IMG/VR virus record: IMGVR_UViG_3300041964_000018
Coordinates: 1-29,428 of that record
From: a virus
Direction: 5' to 3' (one strand)
DNA: 29,428 nt
Shown one piece after another: positions 2,293 through 22,019 of this stretch (positions within the stretch are counted from its first letter, which is position 1; the number at the start of each line of letters is the position of its first letter). Under the pieces are notes generated by a model. The model was not told the origin of the DNA. It saw only the letters and a list, made by a program, of their open reading frames with translations, and did not search any database. The position numbers and the translations under genes are program-made.

Positions 2293-2557
2293 GACCAAGC
2301 GCGCCAGCACGCTGATGATGCTCGCCAGCGTCGCCGGATTTCTATCCGCTTGCGGAACGCCGGAAGAGCGTGCCCGCGCACGGGCCGAGTTCTACCGCAG
2401 CGAGATGGCCGCCATCGACAAGAGAGAGCGCCGGATCATCTACCTGCATGACGCTCGAACCAACCTCTGTTTCGTTAAGTCGGGCCTGTCGGTCGTCCAG
2501 ATCGCCTGCACTCCCGAGGCTATCCGACTGGCGAAGGAGCCCTCCCGTGTCCCGTAA
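2279..2557 (+). CDS. small phage lipoprotein
   Basis: A 92-residue protein with a textbook lipoprotein signal: basic start (MPKPRTKR), hydrophobic core (LMMLASVAGFL) and lipobox LSAC, giving a predicted lipidated Cys at residue 25. The mature part has a basic helix (EERARARAEFYRSEMAAIDK) and a C-terminal domain with two further cysteines, in NLCFVKSG and IACTPEA, which could form a disulfide in the periplasm. It is not obviously an Rz1-type spanin because it is not proline-rich and does not sit inside an Rz gene. Alternatives are a superinfection-exclusion or outer-membrane-anchored accessory protein. The start lies inside the preceding gene. Confidence 0.65.
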   Translation: MPKPRTKRASTLMMLASVAGFLSACGTPEERARARAEFYRSEMAAIDKRERRIIYLHDARTNLCFVKSGLSVVQIACTPEAIRLAKEPSRVP

Positions 2558-3099
2558 AAATCAAGCGCGCCAGCACGCCACGGGTGAGCGGATGACCTGG
2601 TATGCCGTCTTCACCCAGCCCATGCGCGAGCGCCGCGTAGAGCAGGAGCTTCGGGCCCAAGGGTTCGACGCCTACTCACCATCTGAAACCCGGTGGCGCA
2701 CCGTAGGGCACAAGCGCGCCCCCGCGGCATCTCCGCTTCTGGTGCGGTACGTGTTCGTTGACCTGGATCCGGCCGGGCCCCGCTTCGATTTGGTGCGCCA
2801 GACCTATGGCGTGGTCGGGATGGTGGGCATCCTGGGCGAGCCTAGAGCGATCGACCCCCGCTTTCATCGAGGGCGTGCGCGAGGCGGAGACGCTTGGCCA
2901 CTTCGACCGGACCAAGCCACCGGCCAAGATGACGTTCAAGCCGGGTCAGCCTGTTCGGGTGATCGCCGGTCCATTCACCGGCCACATGGTCGAGTTCATG
3001 GCGGCCAAGGACAACGAGAGCCGCGTGCGTGTGCTGCTGACCTTGTTCGGTCGCCCGGGGCCCATGACCATCGACCGCACGGCCCTAGAGGCCGCCTGA
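2547..3099 (+). CDS. NusG-family transcription elongation factor (phage paralogue), one-base frameshift
   Basis: The N-terminal half (TWYAVFTQPMRERRVEQELR, then a GFDAYSP block and a VRYVFVDLD strand) is the NusG N-terminal domain that binds the RNA polymerase clamp. The C-terminal half has a KOW motif (KPGQPVRVIAGPFTGHMVEF). The two halves lie in different frames: a run of five C at about 2857-2861 carries one C too many, and removing it gives one protein of about 183 residues. GTG at 2547 has a GAAGGAG site at good spacing; ATG at 2592 is an alternative giving about 168 residues. Host NusG is usually encoded near ribosomal genes, so a copy among phage genes is most likely a specialised factor like RfaH acting on phage late transcripts. 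That role is inferred. Confidence 0.75.
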
Positions 3100-3324
3100 T
3101 ACACTACCCCTTGCGCCAGAACACAAAGCAGGGCACATTCCCAAGTGGTGACCGGCTAGGGAGCAACGCGCTCCATGCCGAACAGGAGCCCAGCGGGCTT
3201 GGCCGGTCCCGGCGGACGGAGTTCCCGCACCCCTTCCGAAATGCGCCCCGACCAAGGGCAACAGATTCGAGCCCGCAACGCCGATCAACGCATCGCCTAG
3301 CGGCTCTACGCGCGGCTCGAACCC
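3100..3324 (+). other. structured spacer downstream of the NusG gene
   Basis: About 225 bases with no convincing gene. Three consecutive small hairpins can be drawn: GGAGC/GCTCC at 3160-3174, AGCCC/GGGCT at 3187-3199, and GCCG/CGGC at 3202-3213. No T-tract follows, so they are not terminators. A 41-residue frame at 3175-3300 overlaps them but has low-complexity composition and no ribosome-binding site. The spacer could act as RNA, for example as a loading site for the antiterminator encoded just upstream, but this is a guess. Confidence 0.3.
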
Positions 3325-3510
3325 CTAAGCCTGAGTGATGGTCTTGCCGTCGAGGTCCGTTGGGGCTTCGAGGTAAGCGTGGAGGGCGGCCATGCGCTCC
3401 TCATGGTCAGGCACAAGGGCCGTCCCGCACTCCAGTGCCGTCTGCCGGATCATCCGATCCAAGAGCACCGCCGGGTTCTCGGTCAACAGGTGCTCATCGG
3501 GGTCCGACAT
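3325..3510 (-). CDS. hypothetical minus-strand small protein
   Basis: A 61-residue protein on the minus strand with credible composition: an acidic start (MSDPDEHLLTENPAVLL), a helix (DRMIRQTALECG) and a second helix (HEERMAALHAYLEAP). The frame extends upstream to 3570, but that part would run into the start of the plus-strand gene at 3539, so the internal ATG at 3510 is preferred. The ribosome-binding site is weak. It is divergent from the HEAGH-motif gene, with under 30 bases between the starts. Function is unknown. The plus-strand frames over the same bases are shadows. Confidence 0.5.
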   Translation of the reverse strand: MSDPDEHLLTENPAVLLDRMIRQTALECGTALVPDHEERMAALHAYLEAPTDLDGKTITQA

Positions 3511-3538
3511 GGGGCCCACTCTACCACGAGGAGCCCAG

Positions 3539-3964
3539 ATGCACAGCATCGACCTCGGCTCCGGCGTCACCTCTGAGGTTCACGACGGCTTCGCTCGCAC
3601 CGTCTACCCGGACGGGTTCCACATGGACGCCACCCGGCCCGATACGTCGGAGAACAGGGCGGAAGCTGCGGACCAGAGCTACCCGGCAACTGCCGAAGGT
3701 GTGTGGCAGAGCCTGCTCGAGCATGAGGCCGGCCACACCCTCGCCGGCCGGATCCTGTTCGGCACCGAGAGCGCCGTCCTACGCCACGAAAGCGGGGCAG
3801 ATCCCCACCGCTACGCCAAGCGCCTGCACGAGGAGGCTTTTGTCCTCAGCGCACAAAGATTGGCCAATACAGGGCAAGCCGACCCCGTCCTCGCCATGAA
3901 CGCCTGGGCGGCACGGAACATGATGGAGACGGTGCGCTCCCTGCTCCGGCCAGCCCTTGGGTAG
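3539..3964 (+). CDS. hypothetical protein with HEAGH motif
   Basis: A 141-residue protein. Residues around 60-70 read LLEHEAGHTLAGR, which contains the HExxH signature of zinc metallopeptidases. An acidic third ligand is possible downstream (for example in LHEEAF), but I cannot show a full gluzincin or metzincin site, and the motif may be structural. The N-terminal 50 residues are polar. The ATG is preceded by cgaggagcccag, a good ribosome-binding site, which decides it over the longer frame from 3392. The HNH gene begins inside its last codons. Chance occurrence of the motif cannot be excluded. Confidence 0.55.
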   Translation: MHSIDLGSGVTSEVHDGFARTVYPDGFHMDATRPDTSENRAEAADQSYPATAEGVWQSLLEHEAGHTLAGRILFGTESAVLRHESGADPHRYAKRLHEEAFVLSAQRLANTGQADPVLAMNAWAARNMMETVRSLLRPALG

Positions 3965-4271
3965 GCTCACCAACATCAAGCCGCAGCTCGGCTCCATCGG
4001 CCCACGCCTCAAGCCACCGCTTAAGCTGGTCGAGCAGTTCTACAGCAGCCCCGAGTGGCTCGCCCTACGCGCCAAGCGCAAGCGGGACCCCGACTACCAA
4101 GCCGCACTCCAGCGCGCCAAGCCCGGCGAGCGGGTGATCCTCGACCACATCCGTGAGCGCAGGGACGGAGGCGACGACCTCGATCCCAACAACACGGCCT
4201 GGCTCACGAACTCAGAGCACCAAGCAAAGACCGCACGCGAGCGCAGCCGGCGGGCAAGGGGACAGACGTGA
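3957..4271 (+). CDS. HNH endonuclease-like protein
   Basis: A 104-residue basic protein. The core VILDHIRERRDGGDDLDPNN (residues 60-79) and the following SEHQAKTARE match the HNH beta-beta-alpha nuclease fold: first His at 64 (DH), Asn at 78-79 and last His at 88. The zinc-binding cysteine pairs seen in some HNH proteins are absent. Small HNH proteins encoded near terminase genes, such as HK97 gp74, help terminase cut DNA during packaging, and the terminase genes begin about 700 bases downstream. The start is a TTG overlapping the end of the preceding gene. A free homing endonuclease is the alternative. Confidence 0.75.
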   Translation: MGRLTNIKPQLGSIGPRLKPPLKLVEQFYSSPEWLALRAKRKRDPDYQAALQRAKPGERVILDHIRERRDGGDDLDPNNTAWLTNSEHQAKTARERSRRARGQT

Positions 4272-4432
4272 ACCAGTCCCGCCCCACCCAAGGCCCGGAT
4301 ATCGAGGAGCAATGGCGTCGCGCCTTCGACGGACTGTGGGACATGGCCCGGACGTGGCAGCGCGAGGTCAACCCAGAACACAACGCCAAGACGGCGAAGG
4401 CCAAGGGCCGGAGAGCGAAAGGGCAGGGATGA
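4268..4432 (+). CDS. hypothetical small basic protein (54 aa)
   Basis: A 54-residue frame starting with GTG in a GTGA overlap with the HNH stop and ending in an ATGA overlap with the next gene. The middle (EEQWRRAFDGLWDMARTWQR) is an amphipathic, tryptophan-rich helix. The tail (AKTAKAKGRRAKGQG) is strongly basic and could bind nucleic acid. Its position between an HNH nuclease and the terminase genes makes a packaging or DNA-handling role imaginable, but nothing proves it. It is real by coupling on both sides. Confidence 0.5.
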   Translation: MNQSRPTQGPDIEEQWRRAFDGLWDMARTWQREVNPEHNAKTAKAKGRRAKGQG

Positions 4433-4692
4433 CGCGGTTCGCTGAAGAGTTCATCGGGCCTGCGCGCATGGCGGCAGCTCGGGACAGTCGATGGAGACCA
4501 ACAATGCCCGGAGAGAACGGAGACCCCTCGGGTCCCTACGGCAAAGGGAAGCTCCCGCTGCTCCCGACGGGCGGCTCCGGCCTACCGCCCGCGCCCAACC
4601 AGATGAGCGAAGAGCGGGTAAGGCAGATCATCCGAGAGGAGATCGCCAAGCACCACGCAGAGACGGCTGCCGGTCGCGTGTTCGGTTTCTGA
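4429..4692 (+). CDS. hypothetical small phage protein
   Basis: An 87-residue frame beginning at an ATGA overlap. Residues 26-58 are rich in glycine and proline (GENGDPSGPYGKGKLPLLPT) and probably disordered; the C-terminus (SEERVRQIIREEIAKHHAE) is a clear charged helix. A second ATG at 4504 would give a 62-residue version that keeps the helix. I prefer 4429 because of the overlap. The pattern of a disordered linker plus terminal helix suggests a small oligomerising or adaptor protein, but the family is not recognised. Confidence 0.5.
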   Translation: MTRFAEEFIGPARMAAARDSRWRPTMPGENGDPSGPYGKGKLPLLPTGGSGLPPAPNQMSEERVRQIIREEIAKHHAETAAGRVFGF

Positions 4693-4705
4693 GCAGGAGG
4701 CAGGA

Positions 4706-4885
4706 ATGTGGACGCGCATAGGCTTCGTCACCAAGGCCCAGCTCGGAGAGATGCAGAGGCGTGGCCTTAAGGCCAAGGAAGCGGTGGACCGCATCTTCGC
4801 GGAAGCCAAGGCACGTCACCCACAAGCCACGGTGGTCATGACCCCGAGCACAGACGGCTTCAGCATCGACGCCCTCCCGAACTGA
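4706..4885 (+). CDS. hypothetical small protein (59 aa)
   Basis: A 59-residue frame with a strong ribosome-binding site (gcaggaggcagga) directly before the ATG. It reads as a helix (KAQLGEMQRRGLKAKEAVDR), a second helix (IFAEAKARHPQA) and a short strand (TVVMTPSTDGFSI). The compact alpha-beta pattern and the site make it convincing. It is the last gene before the G-tract and palindromes that precede the terminase. Function is unknown. Confidence 0.55.
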   Translation: MWTRIGFVTKAQLGEMQRRGLKAKEAVDRIFAEAKARHPQATVVMTPSTDGFSIDALPN

Positions 4886-5002
4886 GGGGGGGGGTATCTC
4901 AAATTTGAGAACCGGGCTCTCGCGATTTCACCGGCGCCCCCGCCATTCACAGAATAAAACCAGCCCGTTTGAAATCCGGGCCAGCAATTCAAAGGCTCCA
5001 TC
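4886..5002. other. candidate packaging-site region: G9 tract and palindromes before terS
   Basis: A 117-base non-coding interval directly upstream of the small terminase gene. It starts with nine consecutive G (4886-4894), followed by the perfect 14-bp palindrome TCTCAAATTTGAGA (4897-4910). Further on is an inverted repeat, GCCCG and CGGGC, around 4967-4985. In many HK97-like and lambdoid phages the cos or pac site lies just before terS, so this is the natural place for it here. It could equally contain the promoter and operator of the packaging operon. No cut site can be read from sequence alone. Confidence 0.35.
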
Positions 5003-5329
5003 ATGCCCAGAGGCGGCGCACGTCCTGGCGCTGGACGGCCCCCTAAGGGTCAGAGCCGCGCCGAAACAAAGACTCGAGACACCGATGTCCGCCGGGCGGC
5101 CAGGGCCGAGGGCGTCTCTCCGCTGGAGTACATGCTGAAGGTCATGAACGACCCGCTGGCGGAGGACGCTCGGCGGGACAAGATGGCCCAAGCCGCGGCG
5201 CCCTTCGTTCACGCGAAGCCGGGCGAGAAGCCCATGGGCAAGAAGGGCGAGCAGGAGGCGGCGGCTGGCCGGGTCGGCGGGAAGTATGCCCCGCCGAGCG
5301 CGCCGAAGCTGGTCGTCAGCAACCCGTGA
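5003..5329 (+). CDS. terminase small subunit-like protein
   Basis: A 108-residue protein beginning [17 protein letters not shown], an opening I associate with small terminase subunits in phages of alphaproteobacteria; it binds DNA through basic residues. The central part ([20 protein letters not shown]) is helical and the tail is lysine-, glycine- and alanine-rich. Small terminase recognises the packaging site and positions the large subunit. The assignment rests on the opening motif, its length, and its position: it ends in a GTGA overlap with the large terminase. The candidate cos/pac region lies immediately upstream. Confidence 0.75.
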
Positions 5330-7013
5330 AGGAGTGGTCGACGGCGTGCCCGGACTGGGAGCGCCGGATCGTGACCGGCCGCCCGCTCGTGCCGTTCGCG
5401 CCGCTGTTCCCCGACGAGGCCGAGGCCGCGCTCCAGGTATTCAAGTCCCTCAAGATCGTGGATGCGCCCGGGTCGCCGACGTTCGGCGAGGCGTGCGAGC
5501 AGTGGGTCTTCGACTTCGTCGCGGCCATCTTCGGGTCCTACGACCCGCAGAGCGCCAAGCGCCTCATCCGTGAGTTCTTCCTGCTCATCAGCAAGAAGAA
5601 CTCAAAGTCCACCATAGCCGCGGGCATCATGCTCACGGCGCTGATCCGCAACTGGCGGCTCTCGGCCGAGCTGCTGATCCTGGCGCCCACGATCGAGGTG
5701 GCGGACAACTCGTTCAAGCCGGCCGCCGACATGGTGCGGCACGACGAGGAGCTATCGGACCTCCTGCATGTGCAGGACCACATCCGGACGATCACGCACC
5801 GGACCACCCGGGCCTTCCTGAAGGTCGTCGCCGCGGACAGCGACACGGTCTCCGGCAAGAAGGCCGCATTCGTCCTGGTGGATGAGCTGTGGGTGTTCGG
5901 GAAGCGCGCCAACGCCGACGCCATGCTGCGGGAGGCGACCGGCGGCTTGGTGTCCAGGCCGGAAGGCTTCGTGATCTACCTCTCCACGGAGAGCGACGAG
6001 CCGCCGGCCGGGGTGTTCAAGGCGAAGCTGGCCTACTTCCGCGACGTCCGCGATGGGGTGGTCAAGGACAACAAGAGCCTGGGGGTGCTTTACGAGTTCC
6101 CGCCGAAGATGCTTGAGGACAAGAGCTGCTTCGACCCTGCGAATCTCTACATCACCAACCCGAACCTTGGACGGTCGGTCAGCCAGGAGTGGCTAGAGGA
6201 CGAGCTGCAGAAGGCGCAGGCGACAGAGGACGGGTCCAAGTGGACCTTCTACGCCAAGCACCTGAACATCGAGATTGGCCTAGCCATCCGGAACGACGCC
6301 TGGGCGGGCGCGCGGTACTGGCAGGGCGCGGCCGACGACACGCTCACCCTGGACGAGCTGATCGAGCGCTCCGAGGTCGCTGTGGTCGGCATCGACGGCG
6401 GCGGGCTGGACGACCTCTTGGGCATGGCGGTCATCGGCCGGTGCAAGACGACGCGGGACTGGCTGCTCTGGAACCATGCCTGGGCCCACGAGGACGTGTT
6501 CGAGCGCCGCAAGGACATCGCTTCCACCTTGGCGGGGTTCGTCAAACAGGGCGACCTGACCCGGTGCGTGGATCCGACCCAGGACGTGAGCGAGGTCGCC
6601 GACTTCGTCCAGCGCCTGTCAGAGGCGGGGTTGCTGCCCGAGAAGCACGGCGTCGGCTTCGACCCTCAGGCGTTGCCGCGATGGTGGACGAACTCGCGGC
6701 CCGCGGGATTGGCGACGAGCAGGTTGTGGGCGTGTCTCAGGGTTTCCGACTCTCGTCGGCAGTCTGGGGCGCGGAGCGGAAGCTTAAGGATGGCACGCTT
6801 TGGCACTCCGGCTCGGAGATGATGGCCTGGTGCGTCGGCAATGCGAAGGCTGAGCAGCGCGGGAACGCAGTGCTGATCACGAAGCAGACGGCCGGCAAGG
6901 CGAAGATCGACCCGCTGATCGCGGCGTTCAACGCGGTGACGCTGATGAGCCGAAACCCTGAGCCTGCCGGAGGCCCCTCAGTTTACGAGGAGCGCGGCAT
7001 CCGCATGATCTGA
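5326..7013 (+). CDS. terminase large subunit, one-base frameshift
   Basis: The ATPase-nuclease motor that packages DNA through the portal. The Walker A-like segment is SKKNSKST at residues 89-96, a variant P-loop of the HK97-type terminases. Walker B is VLVDE at 183-187, with the catalytic Glu at its end. The C-terminal RNase H-like nuclease starts at [12 protein letters not shown], with the first metal-binding Asp at about 357. The frame from 5326 goes wrong near 6672: after GVGFDPQA the family-like continuation ([19 protein letters not shown]) lies in another frame and ends at 7013. Restoring one G in caggcgttgcc gives one protein of about 562 residues. The GTG start overlaps the terS stop. 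Confidence 0.9.
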
Positions 7014-7023
7014 GGGGAAGCGA

Positions 7024-8298
7024 TTGCGACACACGCCGTTTGCCTTCCCCGAGCCCGAACCGGGCGTCGCTCTTTCAACGCCGACCGCTGGGCGCACTGT
7101 CCACGTCCAGGCTTTCGACGGTTACGACTTCAACGACCCCCGGCTTGCGCTCTTCCTCCGCAGCGGCGCGGAGACGGCGTCGGGTGCGGTGGTCAGCGTC
7201 CACGCGGCGATGCGAAACCCGGCGGTCTATCGAGCGGTGACGCTGATCTCGTTCGCGATCGGGATGCTGCCCTGCCACCTGATGAAGGACGGGCCGAACG
7301 GGGCGGAGAAGGCCTCTGATCACCCGCTCTTCCGGGTGCTTCACCGCGAGCCGAACAACTGGCAGTCGGCCTTCGACTTCCGCTCGCTGCTCCAACTTCG
7401 GGCGCTGGTCCACGGCAACGGCTACGCCCAGGTGGTGCGTTCACGCGGTAATGTGCTCGCCCTCAATCCGTTGGACTCGGAGAAGGTCACACCATTCCAG
7501 CGGCCCGACCTTTCCGTGGCTTACAAGTACCGCCGGCCGGATGGGGTGGAGATCACGCTTGAACCCTCGGAGGTCTTCCACCTTCGCGGCGCGACCCTGG
7601 ACGGCATCAACGGCCTGTCGATGGTCCGCCAGGCTGCGGAGGCTATCGGCCTCGGGCTGCAGGCGCAGCGGGCAACGGCACGGGTCTACAAGAACGGCAG
7701 CTTCAACAGCGCGCCGCTCTCGACCGAGAAGGGTCTGAGCGACACAGCCTACAATCGGTTGAAGGAAGACTGGCAGGATCGCTACGGCGGCGCGGACAAC
7801 GCCGGCAAGACACCCATCCTGGAGGAGGGGCTCAAGCCGGTGAACGTTGGTCAGTCAGCTCGAGACGCCCAATTCATCGAGACGCAGAGGCACCAGATTG
7901 AGGAGATCGCCCGCGCTTCCGGCGTGCCGCGTCCCCTGCTGATGATGGACGAGACGACTTGGGGAACCGGGATTGAGGCCCTGGGCCTGTTCTTCGTCAC
8001 CTACGCTCTCCAGCCGTGGTTCACGGCCTGGGAGCAGGCGATCGAGCGGACGCTGCTGACCGGCCGCGAGAAGGACACGCACTCGGCTAAGTTCAACGCC
8101 GGTGCGCTGCTCCGCGGCTCGCTCAAGGACCAAGGCGAGTTCTTCGCTAAGGCGCTCGGCTCCGGCGGACATGACCCCTGGATGACCCAGGACGAGGTCC
8201 GCAAGCTGGCGGATCAACCCACCCGCGGCGGTGCTGCGGACGAGCTGAGCAAGGGCGCCATGAGCGCGAAGGGAGGACCTGATGCGGAACCGGCCTAA
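7024..8298 (+). CDS. portal protein (HK97 family)
   Basis: A 424-residue portal subunit; twelve copies would form the ring at the capsid vertex through which DNA enters and to which the connector binds. Family features are VYRAVTLISFAIGMLPCHLM (residues 69-88), the block HGNGYAQVVRSRGNVLALNP, and, in the second half, IEEIARASGVPRPLLMM followed by ALGLFFVTYALQPW. The length is normal. The TTG start follows a gaggggaag site and sits 10 bases after the large terminase stop; no better ATG precedes the conserved region. Its last codons overlap the start of the head protease gene, the usual HK97 order. Confidence 0.93.
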   Translation: MRHTPFAFPEPEPGVALSTPTAGRTVHVQAFDGYDFNDPRLALFLRSGAETASGAVVSVHAAMRNPAVYRAVTLISFAIGMLPCHLMKDGPNGAEKASDHPLFRVLHREPNNWQSAFDFRSLLQLRALVHGNGYAQVVRSRGNVLALNPLDSEKVTPFQRPDLSVAYKYRRPDGVEITLEPSEVFHLRGATLDGINGLSMVRQAAEAIGLGLQAQRATARVYKNGSFNSAPLSTEKGLSDTAYNRLKEDWQDRYGGADNAGKTPILEEGLKPVNVGQSARDAQFIETQRHQIEEIARASGVPRPLLMMDETTWGTGIEALGLFFVTYALQPWFTAWEQAIERTLLTGREKDTHSAKFNAGALLRGSLKDQGEFFAKALGSGGHDPWMTQDEVRKLADQPTRGGAADELSKGAMSAKGGPDAEPA

Positions 8299-9166: not shown

Positions 9167-9184
9167 CCGGCCAAGGACACTCCC

Positions 9185-10408
9185 ATGAACACCCGACTGA
9201 TCGGGGCCGCTCCGCGCGCCCTGTGCGGTGTCGTGCGCGCTGATGCGTCCGACCCGAAGGCCATGATCGGCCAACTCCAAGCTGCGTTCGAGGCCTTCAA
9301 GACGGCCAACGACGAGAAGATCAGCGCCGCCAAGGCCGACGTGCTGAACGACGAGAAGGTGGTCCGGATCGACGATGCCGTGACCGCCCTTCAGGCGGAG
9401 ATCGACAAGGTCAACGCCGCGATGGCGGCTCGCCAGATCGGCGGCGGTCAGCAAGAGGTCCGCGACCCCGAGTACAACACGGCCTTCGCCGGCTACGTCC
9501 AGAAGGGCTCGGTGCAAGCCGCGCTCAACAAGGGCGCCGACGACGAGGGCGGCTATCTCACTCCCGTGGAGTGGGACCGCACGATCAACGACAAGCTGGT
9601 CGAGATCTCGCCCATGCGACAGCTGGCCACCGTCCGCCCCATCGGCGGCTCCGGTTACAAGACGCTGTTCAACATGCGCGGGACCGGCTCCGGCTGGGTC
9701 GGGGAAACGGCGCTCCGTCCGGAAACCTCCACGCCGGAGTTCGCTCCCCTGGCGTTCGCGTTCGGCGAGATCTACGCCAACCCGGCCGCGACGCAGCAGA
9801 TGCTGGACGACTCCGAGATCAACCTGGAGCAGTGGCTGGCCGGCGAGGTGAACACCGAGTTTGGCTATCAGGAGGGCCTGGCCTTCGTTTCCGGCAACGG
9901 CACGAACAAGCCCAACGGCTTCCTGACCTACGCGACGGGCGCGGCCAACGCCGCCACCCATCCGCTGGGCGCCATCCAGGTCACCACGGCCGCCTCGGCC
10001 ACGGCGGTGACCACGGACGAGCTGCTGGACGTGATCTACTCGGTCCCGGGTCAGCTCCTGCAGAACGCGCGGTGGACGATGAACCGCCTCACCATGTCCA
10101 AGATCCGCAAGCTCAAGGACGCCGACGGCAACTACCTCTGGCAGCCCTCGCTTGCGGCTGGAGAGCCGGCGGCGCTCATGGGCTTCCCGGTGACGGACAT
10201 GGCGGCCATGCCCAACGCCACGGCCGGCGCCTTGCCGATCGCCTTCGGCGACTTCCGCCGCGGCTATCTGATCCTCGATCGGATGGGCGTGCGGGTGCTC
10301 CGCGACCCCTACACCAACAAGCCCTACGTGATGTTCTACACCACGAAGCGCGTTGGCGGCGGCGTTCAGGACCCCACGGTGCTCCGCGCCGTGAAGATGG
10401 CGGCCTAA
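9185..10408 (+). CDS. major capsid protein (HK97 fold)
   Basis: A 407-residue HK97-type coat protein. Residues 24-85 form a charged coiled-coil delta-domain (AAFEAFKTANDEKISAAKAD and onward) that serves as built-in scaffold and is normally removed by the protease. The mature part starts near residue 95-120. Family blocks include GGYLTPVEWDRTINDKLVEI, PMRQLATVRPIGG, GWVGETALRPETSTPEF, and AFGEIYANPAATQQMLDD. Length and order are typical: directly after the protease and before the connector genes. A GC-rich hairpin with a weak T-rich tail follows the stop and may set capsid expression above that of the downstream genes. Confidence 0.93.
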   Translation: MNTRLIGAAPRALCGVVRADASDPKAMIGQLQAAFEAFKTANDEKISAAKADVLNDEKVVRIDDAVTALQAEIDKVNAAMAARQIGGGQQEVRDPEYNTAFAGYVQKGSVQAALNKGADDEGGYLTPVEWDRTINDKLVEISPMRQLATVRPIGGSGYKTLFNMRGTGSGWVGETALRPETSTPEFAPLAFAFGEIYANPAATQQMLDDSEINLEQWLAGEVNTEFGYQEGLAFVSGNGTNKPNGFLTYATGAANAATHPLGAIQVTTAASATAVTTDELLDVIYSVPGQLLQNARWTMNRLTMSKIRKLKDADGNYLWQPSLAAGEPAALMGFPVTDMAAMPNATAGALPIAFGDFRRGYLILDRMGVRVLRDPYTNKPYVMFYTTKRVGGGVQDPTVLRAVKMAA

Positions 10409-10422
10409 GGGCGGCTGAACCC

Positions 10423-10454
10423 GGGCGGGCTTGCGGGCCCGCCCACCTTTCCTT
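10423..10454 (+). terminator. terminator-like hairpin after the capsid gene
   Basis: GGGCGGGC (10423-10430) pairs with GCCCGCCC (10437-10444) over a six-base loop, giving an 8-bp all-GC stem. The bases that follow (acctttcctt) are T-rich but not a clean T-run, so it is probably a partial terminator or an mRNA-stabilising end for the abundant capsid transcript. The next gene follows 28 bases after the stem. Confidence 0.5.
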
Positions 10455-10471
10455 CCACAAAGGAGGCCGTC

Positions 10472-10855: not shown

Positions 10856-10861
10856 ACTGAG

Positions 10862-11416: not shown

Positions 11417-11426
11417 GAGACCGACC

Positions 11427-12757: not shown

Positions 12758-12794
12758 CCGCCCCGCGTGGGCTTCTACCTCAGGAGACTACACA

Positions 12795-13794: not shown

Positions 13795-13803
13795 CCTCGC
13801 CTC

Positions 13804-13986: not shown

Positions 13987-14004
13987 ACCACCTACCTTTG
14001 AACG

Positions 14005-14042
14005 AAGCAGGCCGCTCTCCGGGGCGGCCTTTTTCATGGGAG
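14005..14042 (+). repeat. 38-bp direct repeat, copy 1 (terminator plus ribosome-binding site)
   Basis: This 38-bp segment is identical to 21982-22019. Each copy contains a complete intrinsic terminator and ends in gggag, which serves as ribosome-binding site for the next gene (ATG at 14048 here and 22025 for the other copy). The flanks differ on both sides. No other copy was noticed in the window. Confidence 0.9.
14010..14034 (+). terminator. intrinsic terminator with UCCG tetraloop before the tape measure gene
   Basis: GGCCGCTC pairs with GGGCGGCC (one G-T pair) closing a TCCG loop on a C-G pair, an extra-stable UNCG tetraloop, followed immediately by five T. It is a strong Rho-independent terminator by form and lies in the middle of the tail operon, so transcription of the tape measure and later genes must read through it or restart after it. 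Confidence 0.8.
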
Positions 14043-14047
14043 CTTCA

Positions 14048-16690
14048 ATGGCCCGCGACATCGAAGCGCTCCAGCTCGTCATCACCGCCAACACGCGACA
14101 GCTCGAAGCCTCGATGGACCGGGCTTCAGCCCAAACCGGCAAAGCTCTCGCCGTCATTGAGAACCGCGCGACGCAGACCGAAGGTCGGCTGGCCCGGCTG
14201 GGTGCGAGCTTCAAGGGCGGGCTGTTTGGCAACGTCTTCTCGGAGGCCCGCAATCAGATGCAGGGCTTCGCAGGTCAGATCCCGGTTGTGGGCGGCGCTC
14301 TTTCTGGATTGACGGGCCCGCTTCTCGCCCTGTCTGGCGCTGCGGTGGCGGCCTCTGTGGGGCTCGACCGAGCCCGCAAGGCGATGCAGTTCGCCGACGA
14401 CTTGGTGACGTCTGCGGACAAGCTCGGCGTGGGTGTCGAGGCCCTTCAAGAGCTCCGCGCCGCGGCCGAGGCCAGCGACGTCCCGGTGGCGAAGCTGGAT
14501 GACGGGCTCGCCAAGCTCACGAGAACGATCGGGGCGGTGCAGACCGGTCTAGGCGGTAAGGAGGCGAAAAAGGCCTTCGCCACCCTCGACATCACTCCCG
14601 AACAGCTGGCCAACATCCGGACGGCCGACGAGATCATACCGCTACTCGCGGACAAGCTGAGCGCGATCAGCGGCACGGCCGCCGAAACCCAGATCGCCAA
14701 GAAGCTCGGCATTGAGGATTTGCTGCCCCTCCTTCGCCAAGGCAGCGCCGGGTTGAGCGAGCTTCGCGAGGAAGCCCGCGCTCTGGGCATCGTCATGTCC
14801 GACGACGTCGCGCGCCGGGCGGCTGACGCGAACGAGGAGCTGCGGATCGCGGGCGAGGTGATCAGCAAAAACCTGACGATCGCCTTCGCAGAGCTCGCCC
14901 CGTACATCGCCAACGCAACATCGGCGATGGCCGACCAGATACCCAAGCTGGCGGAGTTGGTCCGCCAGGCTGCAGCCTTCGGGATGCAGGTGAGCGACGT
15001 CTTCAACCGGGCGGCTCGCGGCTACGCGGCGGCCCAAGACTACGCCACGGCGACGGGCAAGCTGCTCCGCGACCCTCGGCAGGGCCGAGAGGCGTTCGGA
15101 GTGGCCCGCGGCCGGCAGCGCGGGCGCGTGGCCGCTGCGGCGCAAGCCGAACGCGAGGCGCAGGATAAGCGCAACTTCAACCTGTTCGGGACGAACCCTC
15201 GCCCGGTAGTCGACACGCCGGACGTGGGTGGCTTCAACCCTGCGGTCGACCCGCCCCGTCGCACCCGCACGCCGCGCGCTCGCAAGGGCCCGCGCGGCAA
15301 GAGCGCGGAGCAACTGGCTCGGGAGGCCGAACGCGCCGCGCAAGAGGCTCTCCGCCGGCTTCGCGACTACGAGGATGCGGTGGACGGCATCGCCAGCCGC
15401 GACCTGTCCGCGCGGGAGGCCGCCGCGAAGACGGCGGAAGAGCGTTACGAGCTCGGCCGCGAGCGCGCCGGCATGGAGCGGGAACAGCTCGTCGAGGAGC
15501 GCGCCCGAGCCGTGCAGGACGGCAAGCTGACCCAGGCCCAAGCCGATCGGCTGAACGCCTTGGACGCCAGCGTGGACATCCTTGAGGACCAGAACGCAGT
15601 CGCAGAGCTGACCCGAGCTATTGAGGAGCGCGCCGCCAAAGCCGCGGAGGAGGTCTATCGCCTCAGCGCCGAGGCCTTGGGCATCGAAGCTGGCATGGCC
15701 ACCACGCTCACGCAGCGGGCGGAGGTTGAGCGTCGCATCCTGGCCCTGGCCCAGGCGGAGGAGCGGCGTCGGCTTGAGCAAGAGATAGCGGCTGGAGAAA
15801 TCTCCAACCCGCAGGCCGCCCGCTACAATCTCGGCACCCGACAAGCCGGAGAGCGCAGCGCCCAAACCGCCAACCCCCTCGGCCGCGGCCCTCTGGACGC
15901 AGGCGCGGACCAGATCGCCAACGGCATTCTCGACCAGGACGGAGCCGCGGATCGCTACGCCGCGGAGATGGCCCGCATCCAGGAGCTGCGGAACCAGAAC
16001 GTCCTGAGCGAGCAGCAGGCTCAACAGGCCATGGCGCAGTCAGCCGCCGCCTACAATGAACAGCGGCTTGCCGGGGCGCAGTCGTTCTTCGGCGCCCTGT
16101 CTGGCCTGGCCAACAGCGAGAACAAGAAGCTGGCCGCAATCGGCAAGGCTGCAGCCATCGCACAGGCCACCATCGACGGCGTGTTGGCGGTTCAGAAGGC
16201 GCTCGCCTCCGTGCCGCCGCCGTACAACTTCGCGGTCGCCGCGGCGGTGGGCGCGGTCGCGGCTGTGAACGTGGCCAAGATCGCCGGGTTCGAAAAGGGC
16301 GGCTGGACGGGCCCGGGGGCGCGGAACAAGCCGGCCGGCATCGTTCACGCCGAAGAGATGGTGATCCGCAAGGGCCCGGCGGCCGACTTCCGCGCCGAGT
16401 TGGAGCACCTGAACCGCACGGGCAAACTGCCTGGCTACGCGACCGGCGGCTTCGTCATGCCGTCCGCCCCGCGCCTGCCGAGCATGGACCGGATTGCTGC
16501 AGTGACGTCGGCTCGGCCCGTGGCGGCTCCTGTCCAGCACTTCTCCGTTGATGCACGGGGGGCGATCTTGGCCGACACCCTGATGAGCCAGATGCGGGAG
16601 GTGGGCGCGCGTGCGGTGGTGGGCGGTTCCCGCCAAGCGCAAGCCGATCTCGCCAAGCGCGAACGTTACAACCTCAACGCCGCGCGATGA
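14048..16690 (+). CDS. tail tape measure protein
   Basis: An 880-residue tape measure protein that sets tail length and helps DNA pass into the host. The N-terminus (IEALQLVITANTRQLEASMD) is typical. A glycine/alanine-rich hydrophobic segment around residues 75-105 (PVVGGALSGLTGPLLALSGA) could insert in a membrane. Long coiled-coil stretches rich in Ala, Glu and Arg follow to about 640. The C-terminus holds a second hydrophobic block (FAVAAAVGAVAAVNVAKIAG) and the widespread ending FEKGGWTGPG...PAGIVHAEEMVI. ATG 14048 is preferred to 14036 because gggagcttca is its ribosome-binding site and MARDIEAL is the family-like start. Its length would predict a tail of roughly 130 nm by the usual scaling. 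Confidence 0.93.
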   Translation: MARDIEALQLVITANTRQLEASMDRASAQTGKALAVIENRATQTEGRLARLGASFKGGLFGNVFSEARNQMQGFAGQIPVVGGALSGLTGPLLALSGAAVAASVGLDRARKAMQFADDLVTSADKLGVGVEALQELRAAAEASDVPVAKLDDGLAKLTRTIGAVQTGLGGKEAKKAFATLDITPEQLANIRTADEIIPLLADKLSAISGTAAETQIAKKLGIEDLLPLLRQGSAGLSELREEARALGIVMSDDVARRAADANEELRIAGEVISKNLTIAFAELAPYIANATSAMADQIPKLAELVRQAAAFGMQVSDVFNRAARGYAAAQDYATATGKLLRDPRQGREAFGVARGRQRGRVAAAAQAEREAQDKRNFNLFGTNPRPVVDTPDVGGFNPAVDPPRRTRTPRARKGPRGKSAEQLAREAERAAQEALRRLRDYEDAVDGIASRDLSAREAAAKTAEERYELGRERAGMEREQLVEERARAVQDGKLTQAQADRLNALDASVDILEDQNAVAELTRAIEERAAKAAEEVYRLSAEALGIEAGMATTLTQRAEVERRILALAQAEERRRLEQEIAAGEISNPQAARYNLGTRQAGERSAQTANPLGRGPLDAGADQIANGILDQDGAADRYAAEMARIQELRNQNVLSEQQAQQAMAQSAAAYNEQRLAGAQSFFGALSGLANSENKKLAAIGKAAAIAQATIDGVLAVQKALASVPPPYNFAVAAAVGAVAAVNVAKIAGFEKGGWTGPGARNKPAGIVHAEEMVIRKGPAADFRAELEHLNRTGKLPGYATGGFVMPSAPRLPSMDRIAAVTSARPVAAPVQHFSVDARGAILADTLMSQMREVGARAVVGGSRQAQADLAKRERYNLNAAR

Positions 16691-17295
16691 CCGTCTTCTT
16701 TCCTATCTGCCCCGACCCGACGCGCCCGGGGAACGACTGGAATGTGCGTCCGATCGAGTTCGGAGTGCCCCTGCGTCCTGCGTCTGGTGGTCCGGTCCGC
16801 CGCCTTAACCGGCCGGGCAACCGGTTCGCCTTGGACATAACCTTCGGGCCTATGCGCTACGCCGACATCGGCCGGATTTGGGCCTCACGGCTGCTCCAAG
16901 GAGCGACCGACACCGTTGCCATGCGGCTACCCCAGCCGGGCTACAAGACGGGAAACCCAGGCAATCCAGTAGCGGACGGCGCGGGCCAAACGGGGCAGTT
17001 GCTCGCCATGAGGGGGCTCGTGCCCGGCTACCTCATCCAAGAGGGGCAGGCATTTAGCCTGATCGTTAGCGGCCAGCGCTATGACTACTTCGCCGTGGCC
17101 GACGTGGCCGCCGACGGCACCGGCCGGGCTCCTGTCGTGATCCGCCCGATGATCCGCAAGAGCCCCCCTGACGGTGCGGTGGTCGAGCTAGGGCAGCCCG
17201 TCATTGAGGGCTTCCTCGTGGGTGATCCGTCTGGATGGACCGGGCGCGCCGCCAAGACTGTCGGCATCAGCTTCACGATCGAGGAGCGCGCATAA
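16687..17295 (+). CDS. distal tail / minor tail protein
   Basis: A 202-residue beta-rich protein starting on an ATGA overlap with the tape measure stop. Blocks are PDPTRPGNDWNVRPIEFGVP, the central NRFALDITFGPMRYADIGRI, and GQAFSLIVSGQRYDYF. The position directly after the tape measure is that of distal tail proteins (Dit) or GTA gp12-like proteins, which form the ring linking tube and hub. I assign it by position and beta-rich character more than by a strict motif. It has no cysteine-rich or enzymatic feature. Confidence 0.65.
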   Translation: MTVFFPICPDPTRPGNDWNVRPIEFGVPLRPASGGPVRRLNRPGNRFALDITFGPMRYADIGRIWASRLLQGATDTVAMRLPQPGYKTGNPGNPVADGAGQTGQLLAMRGLVPGYLIQEGQAFSLIVSGQRYDYFAVADVAADGTGRAPVVIRPMIRKSPPDGAVVELGQPVIEGFLVGDPSGWTGRAAKTVGISFTIEERA

Positions 17296-17298
17296 GTC

Positions 17299-17937
17299 AT
17301 GCCTCTCGATCCAGCCATGAACGGCGCGCTCTCGGGCGCGACGGCGACCCTCTGCGGCCTGATCGAGGTCCGGCTTCCCACGCGCACCCTGCGCTGGATC
17401 GACGGCTCGGCCGACGTGACGTGGAACAACCAGGTCTTCACGGGCGAGGATCCCGAGTTCGGGGCCATCGACTCCATCAGCGAGCTTTCGGACGGGCTCG
17501 GGGAGAACGCTCCCTCCGCCACCCTGACCGTGCTCCCGCCCACGAACACCGCGGCGGCGACGCTGGCCAACCCGACGCACCAGGGGTCCGAAGTTTCCAT
17601 CCTGGCGGCCGTGGTCGACCCGGTGACCGGGACGGTGACGGGCACGCCCTATGCCCTGTTTGAGGGCGAGCTGGACGTGCCGCGCCTGCGGATGGGCGAG
17701 GGGGAGCGCTCGCTGGAAATCGAGATCGTCAGCGTGTTTGAGCGCTTCTTTGAAGTGAGCGAGGGCGCCCGGCTGTCCAACGCGCACCATCAATCCGTCT
17801 GGCCCGGAGAGCTCGGCTTCGATCAGGTCACCGGAGTCGGCACGCCTCGCTACTGGGGTGCCGATGGTCCGAAGCCTGCCGTGGTGGTGGGGGCGACGCT
17901 CGTCGGGCGCGGCGGCGGCGGCGGACAGATCAGCTGA
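17299..17937 (+). CDS. baseplate hub-like tail protein (DUF2163-like)
   Basis: A 212-residue protein. The N-terminus (ATLCGLIEVRLPTRTLRWID) and the segment around residues 155-170 (NAHHQSVWPGELGFDQVTGV) resemble the DUF2163/GTA gp13-like hub proteins, which form part of the tail tip. In GTA and related siphophages the gene order tape measure, Dit, hub, NlpC-like peptidase, tip protein is conserved, and that order is found here. The C-terminus is glycine-rich and may be flexible. It ends on a TGATG overlap with the next gene. Confidence 0.65.
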   Translation: MPLDPAMNGALSGATATLCGLIEVRLPTRTLRWIDGSADVTWNNQVFTGEDPEFGAIDSISELSDGLGENAPSATLTVLPPTNTAAATLANPTHQGSEVSILAAVVDPVTGTVTGTPYALFEGELDVPRLRMGEGERSLEIEIVSVFERFFEVSEGARLSNAHHQSVWPGELGFDQVTGVGTPRYWGADGPKPAVVVGATLVGRGGGGGQIS

Positions 17938-18368
17938 TGGCCAAGCCGAAGCCCATCATCCTGCAGCGCCGTGACGCCGCTCAAGCCGCGGTGCAGCGCT
18001 TCAAGGATCGGCCCCATCGCTGGTCGTCAAACGACTGCGCTCGGATGGTGGCCTTCACCCTCCGCAAGCTGGGCCACAAGCCGCCCATGCCTAGGGCCGG
18101 GAGCTATCGCTCGGCCCTGACTGCCCGGAAGGCCTTGCACGCCGCGGGGTTCAAAAGCCTGGAGGACGCGCTGGACGGCATGGGCCTGCCCCGCATCGGC
18201 TGGGCCTCTGCCGTTGTGGCGGACATCGTCGCCATGGAGGGCGAGGACGGCTGGCTGGCGCTGGGTGTTGCGGTCGGGAACGGCCGGGTCCTAGCCTACC
18301 ACGTCGACGCGCCCGGGGCCGTCATCGTCCAGCCCACGAACGTGCTGATCGCCTGGAGGTCTGTCTGA
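17937..18368 (+). CDS. tail-associated cysteine protein (DUF6950/NlpC-P60-like)
   Basis: A 143-residue protein with RFKDRPHRWSSNDCARMVAF (residues 21-40), where Cys34 sits at the start of a helix as in NlpC/P60 peptidases and in DUF6950 proteins. A possible partner His occurs late, in VLAYHVDAPG. In GTA and lambda-like tails the matching protein cuts peptidoglycan during DNA entry or helps tip assembly. Whether this one is active is uncertain because a full Cys-His-polar triad is not proven. It overlaps genes on both sides (TGATG), so it is made together with the hub and the tip. Confidence 0.7.
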   Translation: MAKPKPIILQRRDAAQAAVQRFKDRPHRWSSNDCARMVAFTLRKLGHKPPMPRAGSYRSALTARKALHAAGFKSLEDALDGMGLPRIGWASAVVADIVAMEGEDGWLALGVAVGNGRVLAYHVDAPGAVIVQPTNVLIAWRSV

Positions 18369-21300
18369 TGGCCAAGGCGCTCAAGTCCGCTGGCGACGTC
18401 GTCGTGAAGGTGGCGAGCTTCGGGCTGATCGGCCTTGCCGGCGGCCTGTTGTCGAAGCCGCCGCTTCAGACCACGGGGGCGCAATCCGAGTTCAGGGCCG
18501 ATCCGCAGGCCGGCATTCCGTACGCCATGGGCCGCACCATGACGCGCGGCAACATCGTCGCGGAGTTCGGGTCGGGCGATAAGAACAACTACAAGACCTT
18601 CGCGGTGGTGCTCTCCGGCGGGGGGCCGCACCAGGCGATCGAGCGGTTCGAGGCCGGCGGCGAGGTCGTCCAGTTCACCCAAGACCAGGGAGAAGGCGCG
18701 ACCGGCCGCTGGCGGCATCGCATGTGGATGCGGACGTCGTTGGGCGGCCAAGGGCTACCGGCGCTCCGGCTCACCAGCACGGGGACGAAGGACACCCCCG
18801 GGGACCACAACGGCCACCCCGCGGAATGGACCACGGCGCACAAGCTGTCGGGCTACGCGCACGCGCTTTGGTGTCTCCGCTACGACACGGAGAAGTACCC
18901 GAACGGCGCTCCTGAACCGGGCTGGGTCGGGCTGTGGGCCAAGGTCTATGATCCTCGCAAGGACAGCACCTATCCGGGCGGCTCCGGGCCACACAGGGCG
19001 CTGAACGAAGCGACGTACGAGTGGTCCGAGAACCCGTGGCTCCACGCCCTGACGTGGAACCTCGGCCGGTGGCAGAACGGCAAGTGCGTCCTGGGCGTCG
19101 GGGCTCCCATCCGCCTGATCGACGTCGCGGCGTTCGTCGAGGCGGCCAACGTCGCCCACCTCAACAACTGGACGTTGGGCGGTGTGGTCTACACCACGCA
19201 AGGTAAGTGGGACCCGCTCAAGCAGATGTGCCAGGCGGGCGGCGGCGAGCCGCTACGGTTGGGCGCCCGGCTGAGCTGCTTCGTCAATATGCCCCGGGTG
19301 TCGCTGGACGCGGTGACCCGCGACGACATCATCGGCTCGGCTTCGGTGGACGGCAGCCGTTCGCGGCGAGAGCGCATCAACCGGATCATCCCCCGCTATC
19401 GCAGCGAGGCGCACGGCTGGGAGATCGTCGCGGCCTCGCCCATCGTGGTGCCTGAGCACGTCCTGGAGGACGGAGGTGAGCGCACGCGCGAGCGGGATTA
19501 CCCGCTGGTGCAGGACGTGGCCCAGGTTGGGCAGCTCGCCCGCTACGACATCGAGAACGAGCGCGAGCTCCCGGGCGAACTCCTGCTCATGCCCCGCTTC
19601 ATGGGCTACGAGCCGGGCGACTGCCTGACCGTCACCGAACCCGAGCTGGGGCTCAACGGGCAAAAGGTCGTCATCCTAAATCGCGGCTTCGACCCCGTGT
19701 CTGGCGCCGTCACCTTCGCGGTCCGAACGGAGACGGACGCCAAGCATCCGTTCGCTCTCGAGCAGACGACGACAGCCCCCCCCACGCCCGCGCTGACGGG
19801 CTTCGACCCCTCTGTGGTGCTCGCCCCCGGCGCGGGGTCGTTCCAAGCCGCTGCGGCGGCTGTGACGGGCGTCGGCGGCGCACAGGTCCCGGTGGTGCGG
19901 ATCACGGGCGAGCGGGACGACCCTGCGGCCCTGGACATCCTCGTCGGCTATCGTCGCGTTGGACTGGACAATCTCCCGCTCGAGGAGTGGCGCTGGGAGG
20001 TCTACCCGGGGACGGAGATCCGGATTGACCTGAGGGGGCTCGCCCCAGGCGCCCGCTATGAGATCGCGGTTCGTTACAGGACCGTTCGAGGCGTCGACGA
20101 CCCGACGACCTATCGGTCGCTCGGCTTCTTCCTGATCCCCGACCTGATCGCGTCGGACATCGCCGCAGACTCGCCCTTCGGAACCCAGCTATTCGATCTT
20201 CGGACGGAGGTGGACGACCTGGTTGCCGGCGGTCTGGAGTTTGTCACCGCCGAGCTTGAGGGTGCGTTCGTCAAGCGGATCGAGCTGGAGGATGCGGCCT
20301 ACGCGACCGTGGGCAACATCCTCCAGACTGTGGAGGAGGTGAAGGCTCGCAAGCTGGCCACCCACATCGCTGGCGAGCCTATCGGGCCAATCGTCGCCGC
20401 GGAACAGGTCCGCACCGACACCGCGATCAGCACGCTGGGCATCATCGGAACGGTCACGGAGGACGGCCTCGCGTTCCAAGTCGATCGCACGAAGTTCCTG
20501 GTGGAGAACGGTAAGAGCCTGGCCACGCGCGACAGCGAGATCGTGGCGCAGTTCGCGGGCGAGGCGACCAGCTACCTCAGATCAAGGCCGAGCTCGGGGC
20601 AGAGAAGGGCGTCGCTTCGGCTGAGACCCTGACCCAGATGGGCGCCATCCTGGGGCAGGGGCAGGCCTTCACCCTCGACTGGACGCGGGTCAAGGCGGGC
20701 TCGGACCAGACCATTGCCCAGCGAGACACGTTGATTGAGGCGCGGTTCGCCGGCACGTCGACCTCGTTCCTCCTCACCTCAACCCAAAACGCTGCCAGCC
20801 AGGCCGAGGCTGCGGCGTCGACGCTCACCCAGATGGGCGCGGTGCTCGGCAACGGCTCAGCCTTCACGCTTACGGCGGAGCGGATCAAGGTCACTCTCAC
20901 CGAGAGCCTGGCCGAACGGGTCAGCCTGATCGAGAACCGCTTCGGCGCGACCGCCAGCTCCGTCCTGCTGACGCGCACCAACTCCGCGGTTACCGACTCC
21001 ACAGCTGCTCTCGACACGCTCACCCAGATGGGCGTGACGGTGAACCAGGGCGCGGCTTGGAATCTGAGCGCGGCCAAAGTCCTGGTCGCCCCGGGCGAAC
21101 TGCTCAGCCAGCGGCTGGAGAGCGTCGGGGTCAAGCTCGGGACCGAGATCGAGTCACGGATCGACACCAGGATCACAACCGGCATCGGGCCGGGCGGACC
21201 TATCGCCGAATACGTCACCAGCGCCATCGCTACGGGGCAGGGGGCGGTGGCGCGCTTCATCCTGTCGGCGGAGGCCAGCGGAAGCCGTCCGGCGCTCCTT

Positions 21301-21955
21301 ACGCTGGAGTCCGGTGGTGGCTCCTCGAACATCGCCCTGCGCGCCGCAGAGGTGTTCTTCGGCGACAACACCGTCTTCGACGATGCCAGCAACACGTTCC
21401 AAAGCGTGGCGAACGGCCGACGCTTCATCCTCGGAGGCCCGTTCGGAGCGGAGGGGCTGACCCAATGGCTGGGCGACGCCGCCCTGAGCGCGAGCTCCGC
21501 CAGCCGCGCCAACGCCAACTTCTACGTCGCGACCACCCAGCCCCGGATCGGCGGTAGCGACTTCCCGACCGGCGGCCTTGCCGGTGCGACCCGTCGCCGG
21601 GCCTCCACCCCCATCAGCGGAACACAGCGGGCCAACGCCGTGAACTTCGGCCAGAGCGGGGCCGCGCTGCTGGACGTCAACCTGTTCCTGGGATCGCCCC
21701 AGTCCGCAAGCCAGAACGTGTCGGGGATCATCTTCATCGACCAGGGCGCGGGCAACAGCTGGAGCTACGTCGCCGACGTGCCCTTCACGATCACCAGCGA
21801 GGGCGCGGGGATCTACAGCGTCAACCCCGGACACGGCGGGGCTCTCCGGCCTGTCCATCACCTCGCCTGAGGTGAGCATCGTCGTCCAGATCAACAGCGG
21901 GACGGTGAGCAACTGGCCCGTCGTTCTCGACGCCTACCGCTGGCCCGCCGCCTAG
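18368..21955 (+). CDS. tail tip / host-specificity protein, two one-base frameshifts
   Basis: A receptor-recognition or hub protein comparable in role to lambda J, about 1195 residues when mended. The N-terminal third (KSAGDVVVKVASFGLIGLAG, FRADPQAGIPYAMGRTMTRG) and middle (YSWEN-like, LGGVVYTTQGKWDPLKQMCQ) resemble phage tip attachment proteins; a beta-sandwich region lies near residues 510-590. A C-terminal array of 65-residue repeats follows. The frame from 18368 breaks at about 20577 (one C missing in tacctcag) and continues to 21870. An extra C at about 21825-21828 then hides the true end, VQINSGTVSNWPVVLDAYRW and on to TAG at 21955. The ATG has ggaggtctgtctg upstream. Confidence 0.8.
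20432..21210 (+). repeat. tandem 195-bp repeats encoding 65-residue units in the tip protein
   Basis: Four units start at 20432, 20626, 20821 and 21016, each opening with a block like TLTQMGAVLGNGSAFTL. The last three are exactly 195 bp apart. The first step is 194 bp, which is what one deleted base at about 20577 would give. The units diverge outside the opening block but keep IEARF or IENRF, S.LL and an alanine-rich end. The pattern suggests a shaft made of repeated coiled or beta modules. Confidence 0.8.
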
Positions 21956-21981
21956 GCCCGACCGCCACCACCACCAATCGC

Positions 21982-22019
21982 AAGCAGGCCGCTCTCCGGG
22001 GCGGCCTTTTTCATGGGAG
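21982..22019 (+). repeat. 38-bp direct repeat, copy 2 (terminator plus ribosome-binding site)
   Basis: Identical over 38 bp to 14005-14042, 7977 bp away. It lies between the tip protein stop and the tail fibre ATG at 22025, and it supplies the fibre gene's ribosome-binding site (gggagg). The perfect identity suggests recent duplication, gene conversion, or strong selection. Confidence 0.9.
21987..22011 (+). terminator. intrinsic terminator with UCCG tetraloop before the fibre gene
   Basis: Same hairpin as at 14010-14034: an 8-bp stem (GGCCGCTC/GGGCGGCC) with a TCCG loop and a five-T tract. It ends the tip gene transcript in the absence of readthrough, and the fibre gene would need antitermination or a separate promoter, which I do not see. 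Confidence 0.8.

What the first reader, a model, noticed from the sequence alone, without database searches (positions are those of the whole stretch)
2547..22011. Phage NusG paralogue with terminators inside the late operon: possible processive antitermination circuit
Seen: a NusG-family gene (N-terminal domain plus KOW) upstream of the packaging and structural genes; a hairpin after the capsid gene (10423-10454); and two identical strong intrinsic terminators before the tape measure and fibre genes. Known: NusG paralogues such as RfaH act on selected operons, and many phages control late genes by antitermination. Inference: the phage NusG loads on the late transcript and lets polymerase pass these terminators, setting the ratio of capsid, tail and fibre products.
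Basis: partly seen in the sequence, partly recalled or inferred. Interest (0 to 1): 0.75.

Follow-up and report, generated by a model that had tools for sequence, protein, structure and literature searches.

The report
Phage NusG gene and late-operon terminators

Summary
Confirmed: a NusG paralogue (2547-3099) upstream of the terminase genes, and two identical intrinsic terminators (14009-14034, 21986-22011), each ending about 13 nt before the likely start of the tape-measure or fibre gene. Corrected: nusG is split between two frames by one extra C (run 2855-2859), and the post-capsid hairpin (10423-10444) has no U-tract. The proposed link between NusG and these terminators is not supported. 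In relatives, a terminator at the tape-measure start is common without NusG (15/22) and absent from the five other NusG+ phages. The window's NusG groups with cellular RfaH-like factors of polysaccharide clusters.

Following the gene into relatives showed something better. In rhizobial phages and prophages a different NusG-paralogue family fills the same slot, and a 110-180-nt structured RNA follows it (152/152 loci with enough upstream sequence; 51/51 loci found by covariance model). It shows strong covariation, has no Rfam match, and is usually followed by an intrinsic terminator (55/78 against 3.5% of control windows), then the packaging genes. This is the anatomy of a processive antitermination switch (lambda Q-, put- or LoaP-like) with a new RNA. 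The window lacks a recognisable copy of the RNA. All of this is sequence evidence.

The parts
2547..2859 (+). nusG paralogue, N-terminal (NGN) part; GTG 2547 or ATG 2592; overlaps the end of the upstream ORF (stop 2555-2557)
   Evidence: PF02357 E 9.5e-16, phrog_6386 E 3.6e-15; sequence
2855..2859 (+). C5 run at which the nusG reading frame breaks (one base too many)
   Evidence: frames, sequence; the two halves read on as one protein if one C is dropped
2860..3099 (+). nusG paralogue, C-terminal KOW part in the other frame, stop TGA 3097-3099
   Evidence: phrog_6386 positions 117-171, E 1.9e-5
3097..3300 (+). stretch after nusG, where the rhizobial phages carry the structured RNA; no recognisable copy here
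   Evidence: no CM hit above noise; fold z -0.53; similarity to the elements no better than other window segments (23 of 144 score as high)
5003..5329 (+). probable terminase small subunit ORF
   Evidence: homologues at the same place in several relatives; family not separately scanned
5326..7013 (+). terminase large subunit (broken by a frameshift near 6.67 kb)
   Evidence: PF03354; 64% identity to Burkholderia phage Bcep176 TerL; frames
7024..8298 (+). portal protein
   Evidence: PF04860 E 4.6e-92
9185..10408 (+). major capsid protein
   Evidence: PF05065 E 4.1e-83
10423..10444 (+). GC-rich hairpin after the capsid gene, without a U-tract
   Evidence: tail ACCTTTCCTT
14009..14034 (+). intrinsic terminator before the tape-measure gene
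   Evidence: -16.4 kcal/mol; shuffles
14048..16690 (+). tape-measure gene; likely start 14048 (after GGGAG), alternative ATG 14036
   Evidence: large ORF after tail-tube genes; assignment by position, length and N-terminal character
21986..22011 (+). identical intrinsic terminator before the fibre gene
22025..22438 (+). start of the probable fibre gene (alternative ATG 22013), frameshifted near 22.2 kb
   Evidence: identity as fibre by position only

Best explanation
The slot between the early genes and the packaging genes of these siphophages is used by a phage-borne specialised NusG that modifies host RNA polymerase so that it runs on into the late operon. In rhizobial phages the nusG transcript continues into a structured RNA, which I infer is the loading or modifying site for the phage NusG, and then meets an intrinsic terminator. 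Once NusG has accumulated, polymerase carrying NusG (with or without the RNA) would read through into HNH, terminase and structural genes, giving a delayed early-to-late switch. In the window the slot holds a NusG of another, RfaH-like lineage without a recognisable RNA; it probably also promotes late-operon elongation, by an unknown recruitment signal. The terminators at 14.0 and 22.0 kb are separate, NusG-independent partial terminators that lower expression of low-copy tail proteins. Shown from sequence: gene order, RNA conservation and covariation, terminators, phylogeny. Inferred: binding, antitermination, timing and stoichiometry.
For: The RNA motif was searched blind to NusG in IMG/VR and GTDB contigs; every hit with at least 700 nt upstream (152/152; 78 non-redundant elements overall) lies 86-182 nt after a nusG stop codon. 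All 51 loci found by covariance model in whole genomes have a nusG ORF ending at or just before the element, including about 25 without the original motif. Covariation: 16 pairs with changes on both sides, 117 such cells against 42.9 shuffled, 0/500; sliding destroys it; the 3' domain alone 22 against 6.4. Terminator within 100 nt downstream: 55/78 against 110/3120 control windows. Isolated phages phi3LM21 and Rivra carry the element; phi3LM21 shows the order replication initiator - nusG - RNA - terminase. Tree: window NusG with RfaH-like paralogues, support 98/95. Tape-measure terminators in 15/22 relatives without NusG.
Against: No expression or biochemical data. About 30% of elements lack a scored terminator within 100 nt, though at least six of those show the same hairpin with a shorter T run. 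In the window the RNA is not detected and nusG is frame-broken, so for the window itself the claim rests on gene position and protein kinship. WIN, L026 and L002 are long branches in the tree, and the L002 row is very short.
Confidence: 0.65

Rival explanations
1. One reading: the window's NusG loads on the late transcript and lets polymerase pass the 14.0 and 22.0 kb terminators, setting capsid, tail and fibre ratios.
For: Both terminators are real and must be passed, with no promoter between T-tract and start. LoaP, a NusG paralogue, does read through terminators inside its target operon (PMC12691694).
Against: Terminators at the tape-measure start are common in NusG-less relatives and absent from the other NusG+ phages; late-operon terminators of NusG+ phages are near the antisense background.
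Confidence: 0.2
2. The window's NusG is an RfaH-like anti-polarity factor that protects a long late operon from Rho and couples it to translation, with no role at intrinsic terminators.
For: It groups with NusG paralogues from polysaccharide clusters; RfaH is known to counter Rho (abstract of PMC5449661).
Against: No excess of ops-like sites (6 found, 5.5 expected); an alphaproteobacterial ops may differ. No functional data.
Confidence: 0.3
3. The rhizobial RNA is an autoregulatory or stabilising 3' UTR of nusG mRNA, not an antitermination element.
For: It begins at or just after the nusG stop codon in every case checked.
Against: Its 3' block is the most conserved part, it is followed by a terminator and then the packaging operon, and NusG proteins act on elongating polymerase.
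Confidence: 0.15
4. The window record is a decaying prophage with a dead nusG, and nothing is regulated there.
For: Frame breaks in nusG, TerL and fibre.
Against: Many other structural ORFs are intact; single-base breaks in a GC-rich metagenomic contig also fit sequencing error.
Confidence: 0.15

Closest known systems
LoaP (Bacillus velezensis dfn/mln operons)
   Same: NusG paralogue; RNA hairpin in the leader followed by an intrinsic terminator; read-through also of terminators further inside the operon (PMC12691694)
   Different: LoaP uses a small UNCG hairpin; here a 110-180-nt multi-helix RNA. The first member tested scores far below the LoaP cut-off (29 of 125 bits). Phage late operon instead of antibiotic genes.
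HK022 put RNA
   Same: Phage cis-acting RNA that suppresses pausing and termination (PMC9378689 abstract)
   Different: put RNA works without a phage protein and on early genes; here the RNA is always beside a NusG gene and before late genes
Phage lambda Q with qut and tR' (own knowledge)
   Same: Antiterminator gene at the end of the early/replication region, cis element and terminator before the late operon
   Different: Q is not a NusG homologue and qut acts as a DNA element at the late promoter
RfaH and UpxY
   Same: NusG-paralogue fold; the window's NusG is nearest to RfaH-like paralogues of polysaccharide clusters
   Different: Recruitment by ops DNA in RfaH, which was not found here; the rhizobial phage member tested is below the NCBIfam cut-offs
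T7 terminator T-phi after capsid gene 10 (own knowledge)
   Same: Partial terminator inside a structural operon that lowers downstream genes
   Different: T7 RNA polymerase; here a host-type GC hairpin + T5 directly before tape-measure and fibre genes

Membership tests
NusG/Spt5 superfamily (PF02357 + KOW) | NGN domain | tested here: met
   window PF02357 58.5 bits against cut-off 22.2
NusG/Spt5 superfamily (PF02357 + KOW) | C-terminal KOW domain in the same protein | tested here: inconclusive
   KOW half matches phrog_6386 but lies in another frame in the window; intact in relatives, AF2 model pLDDT 88
RfaH (TIGR01955) | score above curated cut-off (rhizobial phage family, first member) | tested here: not met
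   35 of 144.5 bits
RfaH (TIGR01955) | ops DNA element in the target operon | tested here: inconclusive
   E. coli ops-like sites no more than chance in the window
LoaP (NF033641) | score above curated cut-off (rhizobial phage family, first member) | tested here: not met
   29 of 125 bits
UpxY (NF033644) | score above curated cut-off (rhizobial phage family, first member) | tested here: not met
   70 of 100 bits
Processive antitermination system (rhizobial relatives) | cis element upstream of terminator and target operon | tested here: met
Processive antitermination system (window) | cis element upstream of terminator and target operon | tested here: not met
   no RNA element recognised after nusG
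Processive antitermination system (rhizobial relatives) | factor- or RNA-dependent read-through | not testable with these tools
   needs transcription assays
Known Rfam RNA families | match to a curated covariance model | tested here: not met
   no gathering-level hit; permissive hits only chance-level
Intrinsic terminator | GC-rich stem directly followed by a U-tract | tested here: met
   14009 and 21986; not met at 10423

The most novel reading that the evidence does not exclude
Rhizobial phages use an undescribed ribonucleoprotein antitermination system: a distinct phage NusG subfamily recruited by a new, highly covarying 110-180-nt RNA encoded directly after its own gene, reading through the adjacent terminator to start late transcription. 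The window's phage evolved a parallel solution with an RfaH-like NusG.
Probability: 0.65. Interest if true: 0.85.

Novelty: new variant of a known kind. Interest (0 to 1): 0.7.

Why it matters
How temperate phages of alphaproteobacteria switch on late genes is little described in the papers I could search. A widespread RNA (33 of 298 sampled Rhizobiaceae genomes), tied to a NusG paralogue in every case checked and usually followed by a terminator, gives a concrete, testable candidate for that switch. It would extend RNA-recruited NusG paralogues, described for LoaP in Gram-positive bacteria, to phages of Gram-negative bacteria, and it would add an RNA family. The separate finding, a terminator set directly before the tape-measure gene in many siphophages without NusG, points to a simple way of limiting a low-copy tail protein.

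Tried and rejected
The nusG N-half and the joined protein found no close relatives in viral or genome contigs, and the N-half none in phages. The exact window terminator was not found elsewhere; a relaxed form occurs before the tape measure of L012 (its own contig again as L343) and L345, and once before a tRNA-like sequence, L344. A loose hairpin scan by folding energy was too permissive in GC-rich DNA and was replaced by stem-and-T-tract rules. Folding energy alone does not reveal the RNA: known elements L023 and L017 have z near or above zero, so energy neither supports nor excludes an RNA in the window. A first local alignment of window 3097-3300 with element L111 looked good against mononucleotide shuffles but was not better than other window segments, so I dropped it. 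WIN-L002 similarity after nusG was not taken further. Class- and order-wide RNA searches used strict pre-filters and lose weak copies.

Full report
What is in the window. The window is a 29,428-base IMG/VR virus record of a siphophage with HK97-type capsid genes. Order on the + strand: nusG, an HNH-like ORF, terminase subunits, portal, ClpP-type protease, capsid, head-tail genes, tail tube, tape measure, tail tip, fibre and a muramidase. NusG is recognised by PF02357 (E 9.5e-16) and by phrog_6386, 'transcription antiterminator', in both halves. The halves lie in different frames; one C too many in the run at 2855-2859 accounts for this. TerL and the fibre gene carry similar breaks. I treat them as probable sequencing errors but cannot exclude decay.

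The terminators. The hairpins at 14009 and 21986 are identical over 38 nt, with 9-bp stems and T5 tracts. They are far beyond chance under a strict rule, although the tools' loose scan is not above chance overall. Each T-tract is followed after about 13 nt by the likely start codon with a GGGAG-type ribosome site, and no sigma70-like promoter was found on the + strand, so the genes behind them are presumably reached by read-through. The hairpin at 10423 has no U-tract.

Are these terminators tied to NusG? I fetched 80 relatives by capsid and compared them. A strict terminator at the start of the longest ORF after the capsid (usually the tape measure) occurs in 15 of 22 relatives without NusG and in 1 of 6 with it, that one being the window (Fisher p 0.057, or 0.0098 without the window). 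From the portal gene on, NusG+ loci have 0.38 + strand terminators per 10 kb against 0.22 antisense; NusG- loci have 1.39 against 0.23. Hairpin sequences differ between phages while the position stays, which suggests selection for a terminator there. Many NusG- loci belong to one clade, so this is not a phylogenetically corrected test. It is enough to say that the device does not need NusG.

What NusG sits next to elsewhere. Among relatives with NusG, the stretch after the stop codon contained shared blocks. In 152 of 152 hits with at least 700 nt upstream, a NusG-paralogue gene ends 86-182 nt before the motif (some of these loci are the same contigs fetched twice). 78 elements remain after removing those over 92% alike. 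Forty full-length elements give a structure of 32 pairs in nine helices: 95.2% of cells paired, 16 pairs with changes on both sides, 117 such cells against 42.9 +- 6.8 shuffled (0 of 500), and at most 15 when partners are slid. Relatedness inflates the shuffle control, but sliding keeps relatedness and loses the signal. The 3' domain alone gives 22 such cells against 6.4. No Rfam family matches.

Held-out test. A covariance model of the element was run over whole genomes: 25 copies in 20 genomes known to carry it, 33 of 298 sampled Rhizobiaceae genomes, 2 of 199 of the order and 1 of 289 of the class (strict filters, and the one class hit is the centre genome itself). All 51 loci read out (L258-L308) have a NusG ORF ending at or just before the start of the element. 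About 30 of these places were not in the earlier genome set, and about 25 of those lack the original motif.

The terminator after the RNA. 55 of 78 elements have an intrinsic terminator within 100 nt, against 110 of 3120 random windows of the same loci. At least six of the rest show the same hairpin with a shorter T run. The next ORF follows closely, and where terminase is recognised it lies about 0.9-1.4 kb on in most loci. In Sinorhizobium phage phi3LM21, nusG overlaps the end of a putative replication-initiator gene, and the RNA (model hit, 109.6 bits) fills the gap before the next gene and the terminase genes. Agrobacterium phage Rivra also carries it, with HNH next. A paper on phiLM21-like prophages notes the antiterminator gene but, in the searches I made of its text, not the RNA; the LM21 prophage paper holds none of the terms searched.

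The protein family. 54 rhizobial phage members share the NGN and KOW domains plus an N-terminal extension. The first member is below the NCBIfam cut-offs of NusG, RfaH, LoaP and UpxY (for the other members best E-values, not cut-off status, are listed). All 54 match phrog_6386, so the protein as a phage family is already catalogued. The predicted structure is confident (pLDDT 88) and its best matches are solved NusG and RfaH structures (low whole-chain TM-scores, as expected for two domains on a flexible linker).

Where the window's NusG belongs. In a tree it lies with L002 and with paralogues found in 385 sampled alphaproteobacterial genomes, support 98/95, and L026 joins them one step out (98/92); nearly all RNA-bearing phage proteins lie on the other side. 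The genome neighbourhoods I listed show polysaccharide-type genes (epimerase-, aminotransferase- and asparagine-synthase-like ORFs), read by eye from translations and not by family search. The window, L026 and L002 are long branches, so exact placement is unsure. Neither the 63-nt nor the 164-position model finds the RNA in the window, and sequence similarity after nusG is at background. Ops-like sites are at chance. I therefore read the window as a phage in which an RfaH-like NusG fills the same slot, with unknown recruitment.

Verdict. The best-supported antitermination switch of this phage group lies immediately after nusG in the rhizobial relatives and involves a new RNA. The terminators in the window's late operon are a separate, NusG-independent device. 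Every functional step is inference from sequence.

Noticed in passing
L012, L030, L040, L042, L045, L053, L064, L066, L070, L345 and others: Intrinsic terminators of different sequence stand directly before the tape-measure gene in siphophages in which no NusG was found.
   Followed up: partly
L101:12609-12739; L010 and L014 after nusG: The RNA looks modular: L101 joins the 5' domain seen in L010/L014 to the common 3' domain, whereas L010/L014 have another 3' part.
   Followed up: partly
L130 after the element: A tRNA-like sequence follows the RNA at once in place of the terminator; not checked with ARAGORN.
   Followed up: no
L344:1573-1603: A close copy of the window's terminator stands before a tRNA-Leu-like sequence in a 71-kb contig.
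   Followed up: no
PP395642.1 (Nostoc phage Nsp-JY10), about 25.3-26.1 kb: Carries a rhizobial-type NusG and the RNA (82% identity to L092), odd for a cyanophage; the host label may be wrong.
   Followed up: no
NZ_CP140896.1 (Sinorhizobium medicae, 50-kb record): The element occurs on a record listed as a plasmid, 90% identical to L092; possibly a plasmid-like prophage.
   Followed up: no
window 20606-21034: Three approximate repeats with 195-nt spacing in the tail-tip region.
   Followed up: no
window, TerL about 6.67 kb and fibre about 22.2 kb: Frame breaks in further genes of this record.
   Followed up: partly
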